DNA from: Salegentibacter sp. R32
GTDB lineage: Bacteria; Bacteroidota; Bacteroidia; Flavobacteriales; Flavobacteriaceae
Direction: 5' to 3'
Length of the DNA: 64,000 nucleotides
Assembly (NCBI RefSeq): GCF_008692195.1
Contig: NZ_RXOM01000063.1
Span: forward strand, 76,909-140,908
Shown here: in pieces, positions 7,211 to 59,478 of the stretch
Position numbering within the stretch: position 1 is the stretch's first letter
Layout of the letters: every line of letters begins with the position of its first letter
The notes under the pieces: model-generated
Told to the model about the DNA's origin: nothing
Database searches by the model: none
What the model saw: the letters and a program-made list of their open reading frames with translations, nothing else
Made by a program: the position numbers and the translations under genes

Positions 7211-8955
7211 TGCAACAAAAGTTTACCCGATCTAATATTATTGTCTGGTTTCTAGACCTGTTTTTAATTGCTTTTTTGGTTTTTGATTTCGGGTTTCAGA
7301 ATTTTAAAGATTTTAGGACGTATAAACTTATTGCACTTCCGGTACTGTTGTTATCGCTTATTGCATTTAATATTCATAAGTATAGAAGTTTTAACAGCAC
7401 GCTTAAAATAAAAAAAACAGCTCGGGTAAATTTAGTTTTACTTTCGCTGTTAATTGTTTTAGAGATCATTTCGATCATTACCAATTATCAAGGTTCATTT
7501 CTCGATACTTTTTTTAAAGAACGGTATATTATAGAATATGGTCTGCTGTTCTATTTTTTTACGCGCTTAACTTTCTTAATGCGTCGTATTTATAGCATTT
7601 ATTTTAATCCGGCGATTTTATTTGTAGGTAGTTTTGCGCTTATTGCTTTAGCCGGTACTTTCTTGTTAATGCTTCCCGCAGCAACGACACACGGAATCAC
7701 TTTTATCGATGCTTTATTTACAGCTACGAGTGCAACCGCCGTTACCGGACTTATAGTATTAGATACTGCTAAAGATTTTACGCCGTTTGGGCAAACCATT
7801 ATTATGGTGCTTTTTCAAATTGGCGGTTTAGGGATGTTAACCTTTACTTCTTTCTTTGCTTATTTCTTTAAAAGTGGCGCTTCGTTTAAAGAGAGTTTAT
7901 ATATGAAAGATATTTTGGGGCAAGAAAACCTCAACAGTATTATGCGTGTAGCGATGAGTATTGTGGTGTTCTCGTTAGTTTTAGAAGCTGTTGGAGCCTT
8001 GTTTATTTACTCGTCACTTCAGGGGATTGATAGTTATAAAGATCGTGGCTTTTTTGCAGTATTTCACGCCATTTCTGCTTATTGTAATGCCGGGTTTTCA
8101 ATTTCATCTACCGGTCTTTATGATGAATCGCTTCGCTTTAATTATTACATGCAATGGGTGGTTATGATCCTGATTGTCATGGGCGGTTTAGGATATAATA
8201 TTGCTTCCAATTTTATTCAATATGTAAAGCACTTTTTTTACAATTTATTCAACAAAAACAATAAGAAATTTATTTCAAGAGTAATTACACTCAATACCAA
8301 AATAGTGATTTACACGACCATTTTATTGATCGTAGTAGGAACGGGTTTCTTCCTTATTTCTGAACAAGAAACCTTTTTAAGTGAACATAAAACAGTATTT
8401 GGAAAGTTCACCACGGCAATGTTTTCATCGGTTACTTCAAGAACTGCTGGTTTCAACACTATCGACATGAGTAATTTTACGGTTCCCGGTATTTTATTTA
8501 TGATCTTTTTGATGTGGATCGGGGCTTCACCGGCTTCAACCGGAGGTGGTATTAAAACCACAACCTTCGCCTTAGCTACCTTAAATGTTTTTTCAACGGC
8601 GAGAGATAAATCGAACATCGAGATAGGTACAAGAAGAGTTTCAAAAGAATCGGTTCAACGAGCATTTGCGATTATGTCGATCTCGTTGGCCTCAATAGGT
8701 TTAGGTATTTTATTATTGCTTATTTTTAATCCGCAGTTTACACTTTTAGAAATTGCTTTTGAAGTGTTTTCTGCCTTTAGCACGGTAGGTTTATCTTTAG
8801 GGATTACGCCCGAACTTAGCGAACCGGGAAAATACGTGGTTATTTTCTTGATGTTTTTTGGAAGAATCGGCTTAATCAACCTTATGATCGGTATTTTGAA
8901 GAATGTAAACACCACAGAATATACCTATCCTAAAGAAAATATTTTAATTAACTAA
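7210..8955 (+). CDS. ktrB: TrkH/KtrB-family K+ uptake channel subunit
   Basis: A 581-aa integral membrane protein. The four pore-loop segments that form the K+ filter of the Trk/Ktr superfamily can be read: SATAVTGLIVLDT (about 177), SAYCNAGFSISST (about 285), SSVTSRTAGFNTID (about 410) and SAFSTVGLSLGIT (about 525). An extra ~140-residue N-terminal region with about four helices precedes the core, making it longer than classic KtrB (about 450 aa). A single-RCK partner follows, the pattern of KtrAB rather than the double-RCK TrkA. It starts within the hemC stop codon and lies inside the heme operon, an unexpected setting for potassium transport. Confidence 0.9.
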   Translation: MQQKFTRSNIIVWFLDLFLIAFLVFDFGFQNFKDFRTYKLIALPVLLLSLIAFNIHKYRSFNSTLKIKKTARVNLVLLSLLIVLEIISIITNYQGSFLDTFFKERYIIEYGLLFYFFTRLTFLMRRIYSIYFNPAILFVGSFALIALAGTFLLMLPAATTHGITFIDALFTATSATAVTGLIVLDTAKDFTPFGQTIIMVLFQIGGLGMLTFTSFFAYFFKSGASFKESLYMKDILGQENLNSIMRVAMSIVVFSLVLEAVGALFIYSSLQGIDSYKDRGFFAVFHAISAYCNAGFSISSTGLYDESLRFNYYMQWVVMILIVMGGLGYNIASNFIQYVKHFFYNLFNKNNKKFISRVITLNTKIVIYTTILLIVVGTGFFLISEQETFLSEHKTVFGKFTTAMFSSVTSRTAGFNTIDMSNFTVPGILFMIFLMWIGASPASTGGGIKTTTFALATLNVFSTARDKSNIEIGTRRVSKESVQRAFAIMSISLASIGLGILLLLIFNPQFTLLEIAFEVFSAFSTVGLSLGITPELSEPGKYVVIFLMFFGRIGLINLMIGILKNVNTTEYTYPKENILIN

Positions 8956-8967
8956 AAGTTAGCAGCT

Positions 8968-9672
8968 ATGAAAATTGTAGTTATTGGTCTGGGAAATTTT
9001 GGGATGGCGCTCGCTATTCACTTAGCAGACTCCGGAAATGAAGTGATTGCTGCAGATCGAGATATTGAGAAAATAGAACTCATCAAAGATAAAGTTTCTC
9101 ACGCCGTAGCTTTAGACGCCACCAACGAGAACGCTTACCACTCGTTACCTTTAAAAAGTACCGATTTAGCGATTGTGGCTATTGGCGAAAAAGATGGCGC
9201 AGCGATGATGAGTACCGCGATTATTAAAAAAATCACCAATGCGCGAGTTGTCGCAAGGTCTTCTTCACCTATTCAAGATACCATTTTAGAAGCGATGGGA
9301 GTAGATAATATCATTCATCCAGAACAAGAATTTGCCGAGCGACTCACTAAAAAAATCAATCTCAAAGGAAGTATTGATAATTTTGAAATTGATGATGATT
9401 ATTTAGTCTCAGAAGTGACGGTTTGCGACGATGTGGTTGGCAAAGACCTCATCGAATCTAATTTTAGAAGCAAGTACAACCTTAACATCATTACGATTTT
9501 AAGGCAGAAAGAATACACCAATATTATTGGTCGAAAATCAAGTAAAAAAGAAGTCATAGGAATGCCGCAACCAGAAACCGTTTTTCAAAAAAATGATGTG
9601 CTGGTTGTCTTCGGAAAGAATAGCGATATCGAAAAATATTTAGAAAAAGATGCCAAGCGTTCTAACCACTAA
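8968..9672 (+). CDS. ktrA: KtrA/TrkA-type RCK regulatory subunit of K+ uptake
   Basis: A 234-aa cytosolic protein with one RCK_N domain (Rossmann motif VVIGLGNFGMALAIHLADSG, acidic residue in VIAADRD) and one RCK_C domain (from about residue 145, SEVTVCDDVVGKDL). RCK rings bind nucleotides and gate the membrane subunit. It is about 12 bp behind ktrB. Its last 23 nt overlap the start of hemD in another frame, tying potassium and heme genes into one translation unit. The single RCK unit favours the KtrA name over TrkA. Confidence 0.9.
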   Translation: MKIVVIGLGNFGMALAIHLADSGNEVIAADRDIEKIELIKDKVSHAVALDATNENAYHSLPLKSTDLAIVAIGEKDGAAMMSTAIIKKITNARVVARSSSPIQDTILEAMGVDNIIHPEQEFAERLTKKINLKGSIDNFEIDDDYLVSEVTVCDDVVGKDLIESNFRSKYNLNIITILRQKEYTNIIGRKSSKKEVIGMPQPETVFQKNDVLVVFGKNSDIEKYLEKDAKRSNH

Positions 9673-10297
9673 AAAACTGACGAAAAGTCAAGAATCATTA
9701 CTGTTCAATGCCGGTATTTCTTGGGTAAATTATAGCGCAATTCAAATTGAATTCCATAAAAAAATTCAACTACCTGAGCTTATTGAAAATGCTATTATCA
9801 GCAGTAAAAATGCTTGGTTAGCCGTAAATAAAAAATCGAAAATCGAAAATGCTTTTGTCGTAGGAAGCAAAACCGAACAATTATTAAAAGAAGCAAACAT
9901 TACGATTATTGAAAAAGCCGATAACGCCAAAGATTTAGCAAATCGAATTATAGAAAATCACGCAGAAAAATCGTTTACCTTTCTCTGCGGAAATAAAAGA
10001 AGAGATGAGTTGCCAAAATTACTTCAGCAAAATCAAATTGAATTGAAGGAAATTGAAGTATATAACACCAAACTGAACCCTAAAAAATTTGATCAAGAAT
10101 TCGACGGAATTTTGTTTTTTAGTCCGAGCGCGGTGCAAAGCTTTTTTCAACTCAATAAAAGTAAAAATGAAATTGCTTTTTGCATTGGCAACACCACTGC
10201 AAATGAAGCTAAAAAATATACCTCAGCAATAAAAATAGCTAACCAACCCACGGTTGAAAATGTAATTGTTCAGGTAGTAAAAGAATTAAAAAAATAA
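9650..10297 (+). CDS. hemD: Uroporphyrinogen-III synthase
   Basis: A 215-aa protein of the fast-diverging HemD family, which closes hydroxymethylbilane with inversion of ring D. Supporting features: the second-domain signature DGILFFSPSAVQSFFQLN followed by AFCIGNTTANEAKKYT (around residues 155-200), and FLCGNKRRDELP in the first half. The ATG at 9650 overlaps the end of ktrA by 23 nt and gives a normal-length product. Operon position between hemC and hemE fits the pathway order. Confidence 0.88.
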   Translation: MPSVLTTKKLTKSQESLLFNAGISWVNYSAIQIEFHKKIQLPELIENAIISSKNAWLAVNKKSKIENAFVVGSKTEQLLKEANITIIEKADNAKDLANRIIENHAEKSFTFLCGNKRRDELPKLLQQNQIELKEIEVYNTKLNPKKFDQEFDGILFFSPSAVQSFFQLNKSKNEIAFCIGNTTANEAKKYTSAIKIANQPTVENVIVQVVKELKK

Positions 10298-52392: not shown

Positions 52393-52474
52393 GCTCAAGT
52401 GGCGGAACTGGTAGACGCGCTGGATTCAAAATCCAGTTCCTTCGGGAGTGTGGGTTCGATTCCCACCTTGAGTA
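52393..52474 (+). tRNA. tRNA-Leu (anticodon CAA)
   Basis: Cloverleaf: acceptor GCTCAAG/CTTGAGT (last pair G-T), D-arm with AACTGGTAGACG, anticodon stem CTGGA/TCCAG with loop TTCAAAA (CAA anticodon, reads TTG), long variable arm TTCCTTCGGGAGTG as expected for a class II tRNA, and T-arm TGGG-TTCGATT-CCCA. Discriminator A, CCA not encoded. A strong terminator follows directly. Its 3' side borders the accessory region. Confidence 0.97.
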
Positions 52475-52477
52475 CTT

Positions 52478-52517
52478 AAAGCAAAACTTCTTTTTTAAAA
52501 AGGGTTTTGCTTTTTTT
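52478..52517 (+). terminator. Terminator of the tRNA-Leu transcript
   Basis: AAAGCAAAAC (52478-52487) pairs with GTTTTGCTTT (52504-52513), with an inner T6/A5 stem, and runs into a T tract. Confidence 0.85.
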
Positions 52518-52588
52518 GTTTCTCCACTTTTCATCCCTTACTCTGTTAAAAAATGCTGTTGATTTTGGGTTTATTCTGAATTTAAAAC

Positions 52589-52727
52589 TTTTTGATTACT
52601 TTAGGCATACGGAAACCCGTAAATGTGGTTGCAGACAGTTTTGTAACTTGCCTCATCAACAACTGTTAAATTTAAGTTTGTTCAGTTGGATTTACTGGGT
52701 ACACAAAAAAATTTATTGTATAACAAG
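52589..52727 (+). repeat. Accessory-region leader element, copy A (upstream of the protease gene)
   Basis: A 59-60 bp core (52589-52647) starts TTTTTGATTACTTTAGGCA and holds a small hairpin ACGG-aaac-CCGT (52610-52621 region) and a stem-loop GTTGCAGA-cagt-TTTGTAAC (52628-52647). After about 65 variable bp comes a box TTTATTGTATAACAAG (52712-52727), 21 bp before the ATG. The same layout recurs at 54481-54623 and 55751-55897. The 52475-52748 gap contains no gene besides this and the tRNA terminator. Confidence 0.7.
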
Positions 52728-52748
52728 TTAGTCACGATTATAAAAAAA

Positions 52749-53573
52749 ATGGAAGTAAGAAATAAATTTGAAGAACAAGTATTCTTTACCACAACTCGAA
52801 TCACCATACCCCAACCTAATGGAAATGGAACGTCTATAGGAACTGGATTTTTATACAACGTACCATTAAACGACGGAACAGATCGACAAGTCACATTATT
52901 AATTTCAAATAAACACGTTTTTCACAATCCAAATGGAGCAATTAGCTTCAACTTTAATAAAAAGACTGCTGATGGAAATCCTGATTTGGGTAACCTTCAT
53001 ACTTTCACTGGACAAGATTTTTCTGGAATTTACACTGAGCACCCAAATCCAAATATAGATTTGGCTTGTATAAATGCTTCTGTTATAACTCAAGAGGAGC
53101 ATAATGTTTACTACCGGAATGTTTCTCCTAATATGATAGCTAATTTTAATGAGGAGCAATTAAATCCTGGAGTTGATGTTTGGTTTGTTGGTTATCCAGC
53201 CAATAGATTCGATATCAGTAATAATTTACCATTATTACGAAAAGGCTATGTTTCAAGTATTCCCAGAGTGAACTTTAATGCTCAGGACCAGTTCATTATT
53301 GATGCTCAAGTATATCAAGGCTCAAGTGGAAGCCCAGTTTTTGCATCAGTAAACGGACGATTCAAATTGATAGGCATCGTCACCCAAACTATGATTCGGC
53401 ACGGACGACTACAAGCAATTCCTACATTACAAACTGGAATTGGAGTTGAACAAACGTTAGGTTTAGGAATAGTTTTAAAATCAACTTTATTAAACGAATT
53501 GATTGATTCAGCAGTAGCTAAAGTCATAGCAGCTTTGCCACAGAATGATGAACCGCTAATAGAAGAGGAATAA
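52749..53573 (+). CDS. Trypsin-like serine peptidase, no export signal
   Basis: A 274-aa chymotrypsin-fold protein. Catalytic triad candidates: His in LISNKHVFHNP (around residue 58), Asp in NPNIDLACINA (around 101), Ser in QGSSGSPVFA (around 198), the GxSGSP oxyanion motif. The ATG of MEVRNKFEEQ has no signal peptide or membrane helix, so it should be cytosolic, unlike DegP-type housekeeping proteases; no PDZ domain either. Stand-alone cytosolic trypsin-like domains often act as effectors in accessory or defence loci, which is the suggestion here, not proof. Confidence 0.82.
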   Translation: MEVRNKFEEQVFFTTTRITIPQPNGNGTSIGTGFLYNVPLNDGTDRQVTLLISNKHVFHNPNGAISFNFNKKTADGNPDLGNLHTFTGQDFSGIYTEHPNPNIDLACINASVITQEEHNVYYRNVSPNMIANFNEEQLNPGVDVWFVGYPANRFDISNNLPLLRKGYVSSIPRVNFNAQDQFIIDAQVYQGSSGSPVFASVNGRFKLIGIVTQTMIRHGRLQAIPTLQTGIGVEQTLGLGIVLKSTLLNELIDSAVAKVIAALPQNDEPLIEEE

Positions 53574-53603
53574 TAACTGTGGCTAACAGTGCATCGTTCT
53601 GAC

Positions 53604-53617
53604 TGTGGCCTTATGCC
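53604..53617. repeat. 3'-tail motif after the protease gene
   Basis: TGTGGCCTTATGCC, 31 bp after the stop codon. A 12-of-14 match, TGTGGCCTTGTACC, lies at 57869-57882, 8 bp after the stop of the DUF6602 gene. Shared sequence after unrelated genes suggests common unit boundaries. Confidence 0.5.
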
Positions 53618-53679
53618 TAAGAATACAAACAATTACATGTAACTCTTTTATTATTTCACAAAAAACCCTGAACATAAAA

Positions 53680-54267
53680 CTATTGATAAGCAAACAATAC
53701 CACTATAATTAAAATGGCTATACTTATATTCAGCTTCTCTTCTTTATAAAACAGGGAAGAGAATTTCACAATAAATTTATATCCTGCCCACCAAAAAGGC
53801 AAATTTGTAAAACTAGACCAGTGCCAAAGATCTGGGACAAAATAATAGAAGAAATAGTCGTTGAATAAAAAATACGCAACAAAGTTGAAAATCATTTCAA
53901 TAACCAACAGGAAGCCAGATTCAAATAAAAATGACTTAATGGGATTCTTTTTCTTTAAAGGAAATAGTTGATAGTTTTTATGAAAGCAAATGTAAATCGC
54001 CGCATTTCCCCACATAATAGGACCAAAAGATGAAGTGATTCCATTGTGGACAGGGAAAGTTCTATACTCCCAAATAGGCATATGAAAAATCCATTCTATA
54101 ATTTTATATAGAAATAACTCCCCCATCATCCCAAACCAAGAGCCAAAAGCAAAATAACTAAGTATTAATCTCCAGTCAACTTGAATATTTTTTCTTTTTA
54201 ATAAATAAAACCATACAATTAAAGGAACAAACTGTATAATGATAAAGATGAACACTTTAAAAAACAT
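53680..54267 (-). CDS. Integral membrane protein, unknown (CmpB-like at low similarity)
   Basis: A 195-aa protein with about six membrane helices and many aromatic residues. The motifs FGSWFGMMGELFLYKIIEW, GITSSFGPIMWGN and LWHWSSFTNLPFWWAGYKF recall the layout of the CmpB/ABC-transporter type IV family (GS..G...E / G..GP....G / W.WS..NL), but the match is too weak to name it. It is the only gene of the accessory stretch on the minus strand and has no leader-element copy. Confidence 0.6.
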   Translation of the reverse strand: MFFKVFIFIIIQFVPLIVWFYLLKRKNIQVDWRLILSYFAFGSWFGMMGELFLYKIIEWIFHMPIWEYRTFPVHNGITSSFGPIMWGNAAIYICFHKNYQLFPLKKKNPIKSFLFESGFLLVIEMIFNFVAYFLFNDYFFYYFVPDLWHWSSFTNLPFWWAGYKFIVKFSSLFYKEEKLNISIAILIIVVLFAYQ

Positions 54268-54642
54268 AACAACTACTTAAAATAAAAAGCAATAAAAGTA
54301 ATATATAATTTAAAACAACTTGTAGAATAGCTTTTTAAAATTAAACCAACTTCCTACAACAACTCCTACAAACTACTTTTTAGCACTTACTTGAGAGCAC
54401 TCAGACAGATGGGTTGTAGCTTTATTTCCAAGAGTAAAAAAATAACAATTAAAACTTATTTCGGTTTATCTAGGATATGACTTTTTTGATTATTTTAGAC
54501 ACGGAAAAACCTCAGATACTGTTACAAACTATTTTGTAACTATATCACTCCAAAACACTTACAACAATGGTTGCATGTAGATTAAATTTATCAAGCAAAA
54601 AATAACTTTTATGACATAACGAACCAATAAACATGAAAACCA
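54268..54642 (+). other. 375-bp intergenic stretch before the propeller gene, with leader element copy B
   Basis: No coding sequence seen. It holds an inverted pair CTACAAC ... GTTGTAG in its left part (about 54351-54421), then leader copy B: core 54481-54540 beginning CTTTTTTGATTATTTTAGA and ending in a perfect 8-bp stem-loop GTTACAAA-ctat-TTTGTAAC (54521-54540), and the box TTTATGACATAACGAA (54608-54623), 20 bp before the ATG. Copy B is the most diverged in sequence yet has the best-paired stem. Confidence 0.65.
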
Positions 54643-55686
54643 ATGAAACAAATTTGCATCTTAACCGTAATTTTATTCTATAATTATTTTAACCTCCACG
54701 CACAAACAGTAGATGTTGCTACGGGATTGTCAAATCCAAGAGGAATGGTACTCACTAACAATGAACTATACTTTTGTGAGGTGTTTAAAATTTCTAAAAT
54801 TGACATTACAGCAACCACGCCAACCCCTACGACTGTTGTTTCAAGTTTGCTTTTACCAGAAGCAATAGCACTGCATGGCAACAACCTTTACATTGCTGAA
54901 TACGAGGCAAACAAAATTTCTAAAATAGATATTACCGCAACTACACCAACTGCCACCAATGTGTTGATGAACCTGAGTGGACCTTCCGGGATGTTTTTCA
55001 ATGGAAATGACCTCTATTTTACTCAAGCGCTTGCAGGTAGAGTTTCTAAAATTGACGTGACCGCAACTACGCCCACGGTTACAAATGTAGTAACAGGCTT
55101 AGACGGCCCTACCGGAATAGTGCTCATAGGAAATGACCTCTATATTAGTGAAGTTTATGGCGGTAAAATTTCTAAAGTAGATATTACCGCAACTACACCA
55201 ACTGCCACAGAGGTGGTGACTGGTTTAGATGCGCCACGTGGAATAGCTTTTAGCGGAAATGAGCTATACATCGCCGAGTTTGGTGCAGATAGAATAACTA
55301 AGATTAACATTACCGAGACTATGCCAACCCCCACAGATGTTGTCACCGGATTGGATAGCCCTCAAGGATTAACCATCAATGGAAATGATTTATATATGAG
55401 TACTTCGGTAGAAGGTAAAATTCTTAAATTAGATTTAGCGACACTTTCTACCAACAATTCACCATTAAAAAGCTCCATCAACCTATACCCCAACCCTTCA
55501 CCCAATTTTATTCAAATTACGGGACTAAGCCAAAAAGAAAATTACAAGGTTTATAACATATTAGGAGAGAACGTACTAAGCGGCAATATCGCTAACCATG
55601 AAAAGCTATTTATTAACGAACTAGAAAGCGGTTCCTATTTCTTAAAGCTTGGTAATGGCCATACCATAAAATTCATAAAAAAATAA
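54643..55686 (+). CDS. Secreted beta-propeller-like protein with type IX sorting domain
   Basis: A 347-aa protein: signal peptide (ICILTVILFYNYFNLHAQ), six to seven ~40-residue repeats of the form GLxxPxGIxxxGNDLYIxExxxGKISKIDITATTPTxTxVV (residues about 25-260), then a C-terminal type IX secretion sorting domain (SINLYPNPSPNFIQITGL ... ESGSYFLKLGNGHTIKFIKK). The repeats resemble NHL/SMP-30-like propeller blades. Thr/Pro-rich blade ends are nearly identical at DNA level, which suggests recent blade duplication. It is expected on the cell surface or secreted. Confidence 0.85.
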   Translation: MKQICILTVILFYNYFNLHAQTVDVATGLSNPRGMVLTNNELYFCEVFKISKIDITATTPTPTTVVSSLLLPEAIALHGNNLYIAEYEANKISKIDITATTPTATNVLMNLSGPSGMFFNGNDLYFTQALAGRVSKIDVTATTPTVTNVVTGLDGPTGIVLIGNDLYISEVYGGKISKVDITATTPTATEVVTGLDAPRGIAFSGNELYIAEFGADRITKINITETMPTPTDVVTGLDSPQGLTINGNDLYMSTSVEGKILKLDLATLSTNNSPLKSSINLYPNPSPNFIQITGLSQKENYKVYNILGENVLSGNIANHEKLFINELESGSYFLKLGNGHTIKFIKK

Positions 55687-55750
55687 AAATTTTTGCTCAC
55701 AAACATACTAAAATACCTATCAAGACCTGTTTGTTTTTTAGGCTATAAAA

Positions 55751-55897
55751 TTTTTTGATTACCTTAGGCATACGGAAATCCGTAAATGCTGTTGCAACTA
55801 GTTTTGTAAATTATAGCTCTTCTACTATAGTGGTTGAACTTGAGTTTATTTGTCTAAACATACTAGATAAATCAAATAAAATTTATGATATAATGAG
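55751..55897 (+). repeat. Accessory-region leader element, copy C (upstream of the HD gene)
   Basis: Core 55751-55810 (TTTTTTGATTACCTTAGGCA) matches copy A at about 50 of 59 positions, keeps the ACGG-aaat-CCGT hairpin and a GTTGCAAC-tagt-TTTGTAAA stem-loop. The box TTTATGATATAATGAG (55882-55897) overlaps the start codon of the HD gene. Spacing core-to-box is about 71 bp versus 64 (A) and 67 (B). Confidence 0.7.
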
Positions 55898-56945
55898 TAA
55901 TCCACAAGCTAAAAAAATGACCACGGTAAAAGAGCAAATTTCGTCTTTAAAACAATCTGATTGGGATTACTATGCTGATATTGGAAATAAAGAATTAAAA
56001 AATCCATTTACAAGTCGATTATCGCATAAGAACTTTGTGAAAAAATATTTTAAACGTTCAGGAAAAAATGATGTTTTGGATTTTATAAAGTATATGCCAA
56101 ATCAAGAGTTAAATAATAACCGAATAAAGCATACAAATTCAATATTTTTTTTAGGAGTCTTAATTTATAATAGAACTAATCTTCAAAGTGATTTCTTCGA
56201 TAATTTAAATACTGCTGAATATAGACGCTTTCCATTCCTTTGGTTTTTAACGTGTTTATTTCACGATTTTGGATTTGATATAGAAAAAGACTCAAAAGCC
56301 ATCAACGGAATTAAAAACCTATCAGACCTTAAAAATAAATATTCAATAAATAATTGTTTACTAAAAACAAAACCCAAAGAAACAAACAAAGTCCTCATAA
56401 GTTCAATCGAAAATTATTTCAAATATCGGTTGAATAATAGTAAAATCGACCACGGAATTTTTGCAGGATTATACTTTTATGATAGTCTATTGAAAATTCG
56501 AAAAAGAAAAATATTAAATAATGAAACAACACTATTCTGGGGCAAAGAACTCGAAGAACAATACGCACAAGTAGCAACTGCAATTTGTGTTCACAATATT
56601 GGGATACCAGAAAAGAAAGATTTTAAAGAATATAAAAAGTATAATCTCGATAAACTAATAACAGATTTTAAACCTTTGAAATTTAAAGATTTTCCGTTAT
56701 TATATATTTTAGGTATCGTTGACACTATAGACCCAATAAAAACATACATACGATTTGGATTTCGACCAAAAGAAATTCTGGAAAGTCTTGAAATGGGATT
56801 TAATGAAAATAAAGTTATATTTAGAAATGGGAAAAATTCTAAATTGAACTTCAAGAAAATGATTGAGAATGCAGATAGATTAAAGAATTGGTTAAATGTT
56901 AAAATCGAACATACCGATTCCGAACTATATTTAATATTAAGATAA
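55893..56945 (+). CDS. HD-domain (metal-dependent phosphohydrolase-like) protein
   Basis: A 350-aa protein. HD-superfamily residues are traceable: NRIKHTNSIFFLGVLIY (first His), FLTCLFHDFGFDIE (HD pair, around residue 120), DHGIFAGLYFYDSLLK, AQVATAICVHNIGIP (His, around 233) and LYILGIVDTIDPIK (Asp, around 275). Such a H...HD...H...H...D set binds two metals and hydrolyses phosphate esters, nucleotides or cyclic nucleotides. No sensor domain is recognisable. The ATG of MSNPQAKK is used; the upstream frame reads through leader copy C. AT-rich codons set it apart from the neighbouring core genes. Confidence 0.75.
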   Translation: MSNPQAKKMTTVKEQISSLKQSDWDYYADIGNKELKNPFTSRLSHKNFVKKYFKRSGKNDVLDFIKYMPNQELNNNRIKHTNSIFFLGVLIYNRTNLQSDFFDNLNTAEYRRFPFLWFLTCLFHDFGFDIEKDSKAINGIKNLSDLKNKYSINNCLLKTKPKETNKVLISSIENYFKYRLNNSKIDHGIFAGLYFYDSLLKIRKRKILNNETTLFWGKELEEQYAQVATAICVHNIGIPEKKDFKEYKKYNLDKLITDFKPLKFKDFPLLYILGIVDTIDPIKTYIRFGFRPKEILESLEMGFNENKVIFRNGKNSKLNFKKMIENADRLKNWLNVKIEHTDSELYLILR

Positions 56946-57029
56946 AGCCACCTGCTAACCACGTAAACAATAATTGCTGCTATCTTAGTTTTTAACTAAT
57001 TCCAATTTTTGTTGCATACAACCAAAAAA

Positions 57030-57860
57030 ATGAATTCAAAAGATTTTTTAAAACTTATAGAATTTGAAACAGAAGAAATTAATCATTTTTTCAAAAAAGC
57101 TAGTGTCGAAGGCAGGGGTACATCTCAGGAAGTTTCTGACAGAAGAGAATTAGCCGTTAAAAAATTTTTAGAACGTTATTTCCCATTTCCTTATAGAGTT
57201 GCTAAAGGTAATATTATTGATAGTTTTGGTTTAAGAAGTAATTCCATAGACTGTATCATTTTAAATCCTTGTCATCCATATACGGTTTCCGATGAAAATA
57301 AATATTCTGTAATTTTTGCAGACGGTGTAGATTGTGCAATAGAAGTTAAACCAGATTTATCAAATAAAAAAGAGATAGTAAGAAGTTTAGATCAAATTAG
57401 ATCCGTCAAAAAATTAAGGAGAAAAAAAGATGATAGAATTAAACTTTTAAATGAAAAAGAAATACCTGAAAAAGAAGAAACAAGAAAGCAAATTGCTAGT
57501 GTGATCTTTAGTAATAAAACTTTTTCAGACCTGGAATATTTAATTAAGCATATAGGTAATTATTATATTGACAATAAAATCCCACGTAAAGAACAATTTG
57601 ATCTTATTGTAATAAATGGCAAAGGCATACTTTATAATTCTAGAAAATTTTCAAATATAAACTTCCCACATCATCAAGGTCTCTATTTCATTAATCACGA
57701 AAAGAACACATTGGCTTCTTTCCTTTTACAATTAAATAAGTTTCCCCAGCCTGAAGAAAAATTTGGAGTTCCTGTTTTGAATTTCTATTATAAAGACCCT
57801 CAAACTAGTATGGCTATTTATAATGCTGAAATTAACGAAGAATTAAATAATATTAAATAA
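57030..57860 (+). CDS. DUF6602 protein with PD-(D/E)xK-like motif
   Basis: A 276-aa protein. FKKASVEGRGTSQEVSDRRELAVKKFLERYFP, VAKGNIIDSFGLRSNSIDCIILNPCHP and FADGVDCAIEVKPDLSNKKEI are hallmarks of DUF6602. The spacing SID...(~40)...AIEVK is that of a restriction-endonuclease-like (PD-(D/E)xK) core. DUF6602 genes are often found in defence or mobile contexts; the activity is unproved. It follows the HD gene by 84 bp on the same strand and may act with it. The ATG at 57030 is preferred over an in-frame TTG seven codons upstream. Confidence 0.75.
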   Translation: MNSKDFLKLIEFETEEINHFFKKASVEGRGTSQEVSDRRELAVKKFLERYFPFPYRVAKGNIIDSFGLRSNSIDCIILNPCHPYTVSDENKYSVIFADGVDCAIEVKPDLSNKKEIVRSLDQIRSVKKLRRKKDDRIKLLNEKEIPEKEETRKQIASVIFSNKTFSDLEYLIKHIGNYYIDNKIPRKEQFDLIVINGKGILYNSRKFSNINFPHHQGLYFINHEKNTLASFLLQLNKFPQPEEKFGVPVLNFYYKDPQTSMAIYNAEINEELNNIK

Positions 57861-57868
57861 TGGCAATT

Positions 57869-57882
57869 GTGGCCTTGTACCC
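57869..57882. repeat. 3'-tail motif after the DUF6602 gene
   Basis: TGTGGCCTTGTACC, matching 53604-53617 at 12 of 14 bases, 8 bp past the stop. Just beyond (57886-57896), CGAATCCCACC differs by one base from part of the tRNA-Leu T-arm (52457-52467). Confidence 0.5.
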
Positions 57883-57990
57883 TGCGAATCCCACCACACA
57901 AGCATAAAAGTTTATCATACTTTTTAATTATCCTTCTTCACCCCCACCCTGATAAATATCATTTTTTAAGAACAATTATCCTGTAAGCTT

Positions 57991-58062: not shown

Positions 58063-59478
58063 ATGAAAGTAGAACAAATCTATACCGGATGTTTAGCGCA
58101 CGCCGCTTATTATATTGAAAACAACGGCGAAGCAGCCATTTTTGACCCCCTACGGGAAGTAGAACCTTACCTTCACCGAGCCCAAAAAGACAATGCGAAA
58201 ATCAAATACGTGTTCGAAACCCATTTTCATGCCGATTTTGTGAGTGGTCATTTAGACTTGCAAAAGAAAACCGGAGCGCAAATCGTCTTTGGTCCCGGAG
58301 CAAAACCTAATTACGAAGCCATTATCGCAGAAGACAACCAAGTCTTTAAAGTCGGTAATTATCAAGTAAAAGCGCTGCATACTCCCGGCCATACCATGGA
58401 AAGCACCACCTATTTACTCATCGACGAAACCGGTAAAGAACACGGCATCATTACCGGAGACACTTTATTTATTGGCGATGTAGGAAGACCCGATTTGGCG
58501 CAACACGTCGTTTCAGAACTAACCGAAGAAAAACTCGCCGGACATCTTTACGATTCACTTCGTAATAAAATTATGCCACTAAGCGACGATTTAATCGTGT
58601 ACCCTAATCACGGCGCCGGTTCTGCTTGCGGTAAAAAAATGAGCAAAGAAACCACCGATACCTTGGGCAATCAGAAAAAGACAAATTACGCCTTGCGGCC
58701 CAATATGACCAAGGAAGAATTCATTAAAGAATTGCTCGACGGCTTAACCACACCTCCCGGATACTTCCCAAAAAATGTGCTGATGAACATTCAGGGCTAC
58801 GAAAGTTTTGATGAAGTAAAACATAAAGCTGAAAATCCACTTTCCCCTGATCAATTTGAAGCACTTGCCAATGCCTCTCACGCTTTAATTTTAGACACCA
58901 GAAATGCCAACGATTTTTCCAAAGGCTTTATCCCCAATAGCATCAATATTGGTCTAGATGGAAATTACGCGCCTTGGGTGGGAGAACTTATCAAAGATAT
59001 TAATCAGGAAATACTATTGGTCATCGACGAAGGAAAAGAGGAAGAAGCCATTACCCGTTTGGCGCGTGTGGGTTACGACCACGCCATCGGTTACTTAAAA
59101 GGCGGTATGAAAAGTTGGCTTTTAGCAGGAAAAGAAATTGATAAAACTGAACGTATTTCAGCAAAAGAATTCGAAACAATTTTCCACGAAAAAACAGCAA
59201 AGCTTATCGATGTTCGTAAGAAAAGTGAATACGATTCAGAACATGTGGAAGGAAGTATCAATATTCCGCTAAATACCTTAAACGAGCATCTAGCAGAAAT
59301 CCCAAAAGAAGAACCCTTTGTCGTTTTCTGTGCTGGAGGCTACCGTAGTATGATTGCCAGCTCTATGCTAAAACAACGTGGTTACGATAATTTTAAAGAT
59401 GTACTCGGCGGCTTTAATGCCATTAAAGAAACCAACGTCAACACATCAGATTACGTTTGCCCAAGTACATTGTTGTAA
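58063..59478 (+). CDS. MBL-fold persulfide dioxygenase-like protein fused to two rhodanese domains
   Basis: A 471-aa protein. The N-terminal metallo-beta-lactamase domain (1-240) has VFETHFHADFVSGHLDL, LHTPGHTMEST, TGDTLFIGDVGRPDL and VYPNHGAGSACGK, the ETHE1/persulfide-dioxygenase pattern with one mononuclear iron. Two rhodanese domains follow. The first (about 265-365) has Asp in place of the catalytic Cys (LLVIDEGKEEEA) and is likely inactive. The second (about 370-465) has the active loop VVFCAGGYRSMIAS. The fusion couples persulfide oxidation with sulfur transfer in sulfide detoxification. Confidence 0.9.
   Translation: MKVEQIYTGCLAHAAYYIENNGEAAIFDPLREVEPYLHRAQKDNAKIKYVFETHFHADFVSGHLDLQKKTGAQIVFGPGAKPNYEAIIAEDNQVFKVGNYQVKALHTPGHTMESTTYLLIDETGKEHGIITGDTLFIGDVGRPDLAQHVVSELTEEKLAGHLYDSLRNKIMPLSDDLIVYPNHGAGSACGKKMSKETTDTLGNQKKTNYALRPNMTKEEFIKELLDGLTTPPGYFPKNVLMNIQGYESFDEVKHKAENPLSPDQFEALANASHALILDTRNANDFSKGFIPNSINIGLDGNYAPWVGELIKDINQEILLVIDEGKEEEAITRLARVGYDHAIGYLKGGMKSWLLAGKEIDKTERISAKEFETIFHEKTAKLIDVRKKSEYDSEHVEGSINIPLNTLNEHLAEIPKEEPFVVFCAGGYRSMIASSMLKQRGYDNFKDVLGGFNAIKETNVNTSDYVCPSTLL

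What the first reader, a model, noticed from the sequence alone, without database searches (positions are those of the whole stretch)
55893..57860. HD-domain + DUF6602 (PD-(D/E)xK-like) gene pair beside a tRNA: candidate small defence module
A predicted two-metal phosphohydrolase and a protein with a nuclease-like SID/EVK pattern are adjacent, co-directional, AT-rich and sit in an accessory region downstream of tRNA-Leu, with a cytosolic trypsin-like protease in the same stretch. HD hydrolases, nucleases and proteases are common effectors in anti-phage systems. I know of no named system with exactly this pair.
Basis: inference. Interest (0 to 1): 0.6.

Follow-up and report, generated by a model that had tools for sequence, protein, structure and literature searches.

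The report
Unpaired nuclease and hydrolase genes
Two neighbouring bacterial genes, a probable metal-dependent phosphohydrolase and a relative of the immune DNA-cutting enzyme NucC, look like separate passengers at a variable spot beside a tRNA gene rather than a two-part system; the nuclease belongs to a branch that keeps the cutting site but appears to have lost the site where NucC senses its alarm signal.

Summary
Both genes are real, but I found no sign that they are a conserved pair. The HD gene (55893-56945) has no significant match in Pfam, NCBIfam, PADLOC or the PDB; H80, H124-D125, H187, H234 and D277 are identical in all 21 aligned sequences (P0001 plus 20 of 23 loci). The DUF6602 protein (57030-57860) is a NucC relative with NucC's ID-x30-ExK motif. 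HD was found in 0 of 27 other genomes with a DUF6602 hit; 2 of 23 HD genomes hold a distant DUF6602, on other contigs; no other locus read carries both. Both are cargo of a 5.46-kb variable site between tRNA-Leu(CAA) and an MBL-rhodanese gene; three congeners carry other cargo there. Most interesting: all 23 DUF6602/NucC proteins near a CD-NTase-profile match keep Arg53 and Thr/Ser226, recalled as cA3-pocket residues; P0002's supported branch lacks both, yet keeps the catalytic residues and shares a His at position 81. I read it as a NucC-like nuclease with a different trigger. A 67-nt repeat precedes two island genes (diverged copy before a third); its core matches nowhere else in this genome.

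The parts
52393..52475 (+). tRNA-Leu (CAA), left border of the variable site
   Evidence: ARAGORN; at the same border in 3 congeners
52477..57940 (.). variable island: nucleotide similarity to congener G002 stops at 52476 and resumes at 57941
   Evidence: blastn against congener regions; different cargo in G002, G012, G014
52686..53573 (+). trypsin-like serine protease, PADLOC candidate PDC-S45 (TTG ORF as listed; true start uncertain)
52583..52649 (+). repeat copy 1, upstream of the protease gene, with palindrome TACGGAAACCCGTA
54455..54540 (+). diverged repeat copy (limits approximate) upstream of the Vgb-like gene (54643-55686)
   Evidence: alignment score above all 500 shuffles against copies 1 and 2
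55746..55812 (+). repeat copy 2, upstream of the HD gene (87% identical to copy 1), palindrome TACGGAAATCCGTA
55893..56945 (+). HD-domain protein P0001, 350 aa, unclassified family; probable metal ligands H80, H124, D125, H187, H234, D277
57030..57860 (+). DUF6602 / NucC-related nuclease P0002, 276 aa; catalytic D74, E105, K107; positions aligned with NucC Arg53, Tyr81 and Thr226 are Pro, His and gap

Best explanation
The two genes are independently acquired accessory cargo at a tRNA-Leu-associated variable site, not a two-gene system. The DUF6602 protein is a NucC relative from an orphan branch: it keeps the metal-dependent DNA-cutting motif but lacks the residues aligned with the cA3 (cyclic tri-AMP) pocket that all 23 CD-NTase-linked relatives I compared retain. 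Most likely it is a stand-alone DNA endonuclease held inactive until a trigger other than cA3 appears during phage or plasmid entry, after which it cuts DNA as NucC does (inferred). The HD protein is most likely a two-metal phosphohydrolase of nucleotides or nucleic acid that acts on its own; in some other genomes it lies beside restriction, Abi or TIR genes and is therefore plausibly, but not demonstrably, defensive. Shown here: sequence relationships, motif conservation, no co-occurrence found, variable site. Inferred: nuclease activity, trigger, HD chemistry, defence role.
For: Pairing: no HD match in 46 DUF6602 regions; no DUF6602 among 344 ORFs of the 26 HD loci held, three of them duplicates; HD and DUF6602 profile hits fall in disjoint loci over 1,503 ORFs, own-genome loci around the island left out, 26 HD loci recovered as positive control. 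HD in 0 of 27 other DUF6602 genomes; DUF6602 in 2 of 23 HD genomes against 16 of 395 in the phylum sample, own genome included (p = 0.24). The 79%-identical DUF6602 in G575 shares DNA similarity only over window 57010-57836, without HD. NucC relation of P0002 itself: PADLOC NucC 1.1e-17, Serratia NucC 7zgv 3.4e-8. D74-to-E105 distance 31, as in all 23 CD-NTase-linked members. Pocket: Arg53 in 23 of 23 and Thr/Ser226 in 23 of 23 of these, both absent in P0002's branch; tree with separate CBASS-type clade (96/97) and P0002 branch (98/95). HD: six ligand residues in 21 of 21; Arg three residues before the first His in 17 of 21. Site. Defence-type neighbours at 5 of 23 HD loci (L024, L025, L031, L034, L040), from 10 hand-picked proteins.
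Against: The genes are co-directional, 84 bp apart, similarly AT-rich and have no terminator-like site between them, so co-transcription here is possible. Only 1 of 23 HD loci encodes a relative above 40% identity, so a young pairing in a narrow lineage cannot be excluded. The 2 HD genomes with a DUF6602 are fragmented: both genes lie on different contigs, so nearness there is untested. In 3 of the 5 defence-flanked HD loci (L024, L034, L040) the HD frame is interrupted. The H..HD..H..H..D set is also that of HD oxygenases (PMC8177086). The pocket roles of Arg53, Tyr81 and Thr226 are recalled from Lau et al. 2020, not read, and the 226 column is a gap in P0002's branch, so its counterpart is unsure. 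7 of the 23 CD-NTase-linked loci supplied the home-made CD-NTase profile that labels them; PADLOC confirmed the two tested. The P0002 model was poor (pLDDT 46.7). There is no direct evidence of defence.
Confidence: 0.6

Rival explanations
1. A true two-gene defence module: HD makes, removes or processes the nucleotide signal that controls the NucC-like nuclease.
For: Adjacent, same strand, 84 bp gap, similar AT-richness, no terminator-like site between them. Some HD enzymes hydrolyse cyclic dinucleotides (PMC8177086, passages read), so the chemistry could fit an off-switch.
Against: No other locus found with both; no genome-level association; the 79%-identical DUF6602 exists without HD; the repeat element precedes HD but not DUF6602.
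Confidence: 0.12
2. P0002 is an ordinary cA3-activated NucC that answers a signal synthase encoded elsewhere in the same genome.
For: NucC homology; the genome holds a SMODS-type CD-NTase. Other synthases (Cas10, non-SMODS CD-NTases) were not searched.
Against: That CD-NTase sits beside its own patatin-like phospholipase effector, a type linked to 3'3'-cGAMP (PMC10419184, passage read); Arg53 and Thr226 are missing in P0002.
Confidence: 0.08
3. P0002 and HD are not defensive: decaying or domesticated mobile-element genes. P0002's relatives in viral contigs L046/L047 lie one gene upstream of terminase-like genes (terminase judged by eye).
For: Gene order in L046 and L047; sporadic distribution; interrupted frames in some relatives (L107 DUF6602 in two pieces, L024/L034/L040 HD).
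Against: Open frames here with fully conserved active sites. From general knowledge, prophages often carry defence genes, so the position does not argue against defence.
Confidence: 0.2
4. For the HD gene only (not exclusive with the others): it is an HD oxygenase or other non-phosphohydrolase enzyme.
For: PMC8177086 gives H..HD..H..H..D as the oxygenase ligand set (figure legend read), the very pattern here.
Against: Arg three residues before the first His in 17 of 21, which the same paper gives as a mark of phosphohydrolases; the top fold rows are mostly phosphatases and phosphodiesterases, though at middling Z.
Confidence: 0.1

Closest known systems
NucC (CBASS and type III CRISPR effector nuclease; E. 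coli, Serratia, Vibrio)
   Same: Homologous by sequence, same ID-x30-ExK motif and similar length
   Different: No CD-NTase or CRISPR genes in the island; Arg53, Tyr81 and Thr226 positions are Pro, His and gap; separate branch
DUF6602 (PF20247), unnamed stand-alone members
   Same: Pfam hit 5.6e-20, over cut-off; stand-alone gene as in G575, G083, G032
   Different: Nothing to compare with: 0 papers in the library searched hold the word DUF6602
Dinuclear HD enzymes (YqeK, Cas3 HD, PgpH, HD-GYP; oxygenases MIOX, PhnZ)
   Same: H..HD..H..H..D ligand set, and mostly the Arg three residues before the first His, as in PMC8177086 (passages)
   Different: No significant sequence-family match; one His (not HH) at 234-235 in 20 of 21 aligned sequences
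Clover (CloA dNTPase + CloB)
   Same: An HD enzyme serving in phage defence (PMC12265719, outline, abstract and opening text read)
   Different: No nucleotidyltransferase beside the HD gene here; CloA is described with an HD motif and HE dyad
Nuclease-protease pairs of Hachiman/AVAST (PMC12799240, outline with abstract and introduction read)
   Different: There the nuclease is an MBL-fold proenzyme and the protease is fused to other defence proteins; here PDC-S45 and P0002 are 3.5 kb apart, and no PDC-S45-like ORF was found in the DUF6602 loci read; the one weak hit (1.5e-4) lies in an HD locus, L043

Membership tests
NucC (cA3-activated nuclease) | homology to NucC with catalytic ID-x30-ExK | tested here: met
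   (D74, E105, K107; distance 31); the profile match is driven in part by CBASS-linked rows
NucC (cA3-activated nuclease) | cA3-pocket residues (Arg53, Thr226; roles recalled) | tested here: not met
   Pro and gap in P0002; Arg in 23 of 23 and Thr/Ser in 23 of 23 CD-NTase-linked members
NucC (cA3-activated nuclease) | neighbouring CD-NTase or type III CRISPR locus | tested here: not met
   Pfam scan of the island's genes shows neither; the genome's one SMODS hit lies on another contig with its own effector. Cas10 and other CD-NTase families were not searched genome-wide
NucC (cA3-activated nuclease) | trimer to hexamer on cA3 binding, dsDNA cleavage | not testable with these tools
   needs purified protein
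HD-domain superfamily | H..HD..D metal ligands | tested here: met
   H80, H124-D125, D277 in 21 of 21 aligned sequences
HD-domain superfamily | HD fold | tested here: inconclusive
   model pLDDT 88.1; Foldseek 0 matches at E <= 0.001; VIA second look: exopolyphosphatases Z 10.0 and 9.6, PDEs up to 8.2, Ddi2 7.7, values the tool calls possible for unrelated helical models
HD-GYP / PDE subclass | H..HD..H..HH..D (HD-GYP also the GYP triad) | tested here: not met
   Asn follows H234 in 20 of 21, His in 1 of 21
conserved HD + DUF6602 defence system | recurrent adjacency in unrelated genomes | tested here: not met

The most novel reading that the evidence does not exclude
P0002 represents an orphan NucC branch whose allosteric pocket has been re-tooled (shared His at the NucC Tyr81 position, Arg53 and Thr226 gone) to sense a different small molecule or a phage cue, giving a one-gene immune nuclease that travels on prophages and tRNA islands.
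Probability: 0.3. Interest if true: 0.6.

Novelty: new variant of a known kind. Interest (0 to 1): 0.35.

Why it matters
NucC is known as an effector that waits for cA3. A related branch that keeps the blade but not the cA3 sensor would show that the NucC scaffold has been rewired to other triggers, and offers a one-gene, testable case. It also corrects the proposed HD + DUF6602 module, which would otherwise invite pair-wise tests with little prospect.

Tried and rejected
Tried without result: P0001 in plasmids and phages (no match) and in viral contigs (none); P0002 in plasmids and phages (no match); P0001 alone and the 21-row profile against the PDB (one insignificant hit at 0.11; none); the 21 HD proteins against Pfam (three families at E 0.07-0.1, one member each); Rfam over the island (only the tRNA above its gathering score); DNA folding of the repeat copies, five strands (z-scores -0.17 to -1.92); exact or near-exact copies of the tRNA 3' end inside the island (none); shared partners of the DUF6602 genes without a CD-NTase (no convincing one). 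The P0002 structure model was too poor to search with.

Considered and rejected: an integron-like cassette array for the repeats (no attC-like structure shown); Cas3 membership of HD (E 0.021); a PDC-S45 protease + NucC-like nuclease pair (no PDC-S45-like ORF in the DUF6602 loci read).

Limits: one search carries the tool's warning that an empty answer without a positive control in the same search shows nothing; the control for the HD family is, made with another profile (A3) on loci already read. Several HD loci end within a few kb of the gene. The HD alignment left out 3 of 23 loci with interrupted frames (L024, L034, L040). The bulk scans of HD neighbours took 80 ORFs from 22 of 23 loci, gave no per-member rows, listed 25 of 171 and 25 of 109 families, and had no control set; 10 hand-picked proteins were scanned in detail. 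Before the residue counts I dropped 3 of 47 DUF6602 ORFs (two L107 pieces, L159) and added P0002, giving 45 rows; before the tree, L047, L122 and L149, giving 42. Seven loci (L108-L112, L115, L124), with L126, supplied the CD-NTase profile by which the 23 were labelled. The tree is rooted at its midpoint for drawing only.

Full report
Observation. The finding names two co-directional genes at 55893-57860. Both are there: the first encodes 350 aa (P0001), the second 276 aa from ATG 57030 (P0002). They are the two most AT-rich of 42 ORFs of 200 aa or more in the window by a simple ORF caller. tRNA-Leu(CAA) at 52393-52475 and a trypsin-like protease at 52686-53573 (Pfam Trypsin_2 2.9e-10, PADLOC PDC-S45 4.8e-52) are as described.

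Where they sit. The MBL-rhodanese gene (58063-59478) has a long match of 61% or better in 10 of the 15 other genomes of the genus searched; I read the region of those 10. In 3 of them (G002, G012, G014) the same Prs/tRNA-Leu(CAA) block lies on one side and the MBL-rhodanese gene on the other, and none of the 3 has an HD, DUF6602 or PDC-S45 match between them. In the other 7 the block is not in the stretch read; G010's contig ends first. DNA similarity to G002 ends at 52476 and resumes at 57941, so the window carries a 5.46-kb cargo. G002 has there a CapP-like protein (9.3e-17), an HTH protein (PADLOC HTH_VI 3.7e-12, capH 6.6e-8) and a weakly E1-like protein (1e-6); in G010 a CD-NTase match, spread over two ORFs of which the second also matches E2 models, lies upstream of the same gene. 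The cargo of G012 and G014 is not recognisably defensive (by eye; the one G012 protein scanned had no PADLOC hit). The site is variable and sometimes takes defence-type genes. The host family is Flavobacteriaceae by inference: contig G018:C83, 'same family', has the length and HD gene of the named record in L025.

The HD protein. No Pfam, NCBIfam, PADLOC or PDB match is significant. Homologues are rare: 2 of 60 relatives and 4 of 395 genomes of the phylum, own genome included and one of the four a 32-residue match; 23 loci in the genome collection, mostly Bacteroidota, also Ignavibacteria, a Chlorobiaceae bin and Firmicutes. In an alignment of P0001 with 20 of these 23, H80, H124, D125, H187, H234 and D277 are identical in 21 of 21; Arg stands three residues before H80 in 17, Lys in 3, His in 1. 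PMC8177086 (passages read) describes two extra histidines between HD and D as a dinuclear arrangement, gives H..HD..H..HH..D for phosphodiesterases and H..HD..H..H..D for oxygenases, and an arginine before the first histidine for phosphohydrolases. The ligand set alone thus fits a YqeK-like phosphohydrolase or an oxygenase; the arginine favours the former. The model is confident (pLDDT 88.1, pTM 0.89); Foldseek gave nothing at E of 0.001 or better; the VIA-align second look puts exopolyphosphatases (Z 10.0, 9.6), a tRNA-processing enzyme (8.5), cyclic-nucleotide phosphodiesterases (up to 8.2) and cyanamide hydratase (7.7) on top, middling values for a helical protein. I take it as a two-metal HD enzyme of unknown substrate, most likely a phosphohydrolase. 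Neighbours vary: a type I restriction operon with a SIR2-like gene (L025), helicase and methylase (L024), Abi_alpha (L031, L040), methylase (L040), TIR (L034) among 10 hand-picked proteins, but in many Bacteroidales LRR, TPR, Hsp70 or kinase genes. In L024, L034 and L040 the HD frame is interrupted. Defence is plausible, not shown.

The DUF6602 protein. Pfam DUF6602 5.6e-20; PADLOC NucC models 1.1e-17 and 1.3e-16; Serratia NucC in the PDB 3.4e-8 by P0002 alone. A 14-member profile, which includes CBASS-linked relatives, finds five PDB sequences at 1.3e-45 to 1.1e-37, four named NucC and one ORF C62. I73-D74-x30-E105-x-K107 has NucC's spacing. In 46 regions holding 47 DUF6602 ORFs, 23 ORFs have a match to a home-made CD-NTase profile within five ORFs, and no region has HD. 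Seven of these 23 loci supplied the profile; PADLOC scans of two loci (L108, L110) confirm cyclase, E1-E2 and JAB matches. P0002's nearest relatives (G575 79%, viral contigs L046/L047 45%, G083 34%, G032 32%) have none of these beside them. The own genome holds a second, distant DUF6602 on contig 2.

The pocket. I mapped columns on the NucC-like protein of viral contig L124, which lies near a CD-NTase-like gene. All 23 CD-NTase-linked proteins have Arg at 53 and Thr (22) or Ser (1) at 226, and Tyr (18) or Phe (5) at 81. Of the 22 others, P0002 included, 3 keep Arg53 with Thr226: L147 and L166 fall in the CBASS-type clade, and L122 (not in the tree) opens its contig at this gene. P0002, L105, L046, L047, L104 and L106 have Pro or Asp at 53, a gap at 226 and His at 81 in a shared P-x-HP motif. 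The catalytic D/E/K is present in 23 of 23 and 21 of 22. The maximum-likelihood tree of 42 has a CBASS-type clade of 25 (96/97, 23 labelled CBASS) and P0002's branch of 5 (98/95); other orphans have long, unsure branches. That Arg53, Tyr81 and Thr226 contact cA3 is recalled from Lau et al. 2020, not read here.

Is there a cA3 source? The genome's one SMODS hit lies on contig 48 beside a patatin-like phospholipase, a CBASS arrangement with its own effector. PMC10419184 (passage read) links CapV to 3'3'-cGAMP and NucC to cA3. Cas10 and other CD-NTase families were not searched.

Pairing. HD in 0 of 27 other DUF6602 genomes (with the tool's caution about a missing positive control); DUF6602 in 2 of 23 HD genomes, both distant (29% and 34%) and on contigs other than the HD contig, in fragmented genomes. 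Backgrounds, own genome included: 16 of 395 in the phylum sample, 14 of 397 in the family, 18 of 395 in the class, the last two with profiles. 2 of 23 against 15 of 394 gives Fisher p = 0.24. Over 1,503 ORFs of the loci read, own-genome loci around the island left out, HD and DUF6602 profile hits never share a locus. The G575 orthologue matches the window's DNA only from 57010 to 57836. The pair is best read as chance neighbours in a cargo site.

Mechanism, steps marked. Shown: homology, intact motifs, missing pocket residues, stand-alone context. Inferred: P0002 is an oligomeric DNA endonuclease kept off until a non-cA3 cue, then cuts DNA in an abortive or restrictive way; the HD protein hydrolyses phosphoesters independently. 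The two could still be co-transcribed in this strain: no terminator-like site lies between them.

A side finding. A 67-nt direct repeat (87% identical) lies upstream of the protease gene and of the HD gene, with a diverged copy upstream of the Vgb-like gene. All three pairwise scores exceed each of 500 shuffles; the stretch before DUF6602 does not. The core pattern, up to 3 mismatches, is found twice in the whole genome, and a slightly shorter one in none of 275 other genomes. The repeat holds a TACGGAAAyCCGTA palindrome; TACGG-N4-CCGTA occurs 6 times in 1.56 Mb of loci, two of them here, one about 100 bp upstream of a gene I judge by eye to be LexA-like, heading a CBASS operon in L110, and one inside a gene in L109. 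An operator or a cassette scar are both possible.

Novelty. In the listings seen (10-20 rows each) no paper is presented as describing NucC relatives without the cA3 pocket, and none in the library holds the word DUF6602; most subscription papers and preprint servers are outside that library. I rate it a new variant of a known kind (NucC-like nuclease), with the pair itself rejected as a system.

Noticed in passing
window 52583-52649, about 54455-54540, 55746-55812: A repeated element (67 nt in the two clear copies) with a TACGGAAAyCCGTA palindrome in those two precedes three island genes in the same orientation; the core pattern is found twice in the whole genome and in 0 of 275 other genomes.
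   Followed up: partly
L110:5304: The palindrome TACGGAAACCCGTA stands about 100 bp upstream of a gene that looks LexA-like (by eye), directly before a CD-NTase/E1-E2/NucC operon; a possible operator.
   Followed up: no
L108:7839-8909, L160:6500-7306, L162:6127-7191, L167:9147-9935, and L169: In these five loci a second gene matching the home-made CD-NTase profile lies directly beside the NucC-like gene, besides the usual one; in L108 and L162 it has an N-terminal membrane-like stretch by eye.
   Followed up: no
L046:3104-7504, L047:2-5980: Viral contigs carry a P0002 homologue followed by one unknown gene and then terminase-like and portal-like genes (by eye).
   Followed up: no
L126 (G000:C48): The window's own genome carries a small CBASS with a patatin-like phospholipase and a CD-NTase.
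   Followed up: partly
L117 (G000:C2:12000-31000), 8897-9841: A second, distant DUF6602 gene in the window's own genome, close to one in G629.
   Followed up: no
L094:2582-6501: In a congener the same tRNA-Leu site holds CapP/CapH-like proteins and a weakly E1-like protein next to what looks like a ubiquitin-like protein gene (by eye).
   Followed up: no
window 54643-55686: A Vgb-like protein with 126-nt internal repeats and a C-terminal sorting domain lies inside the island.
   Followed up: no
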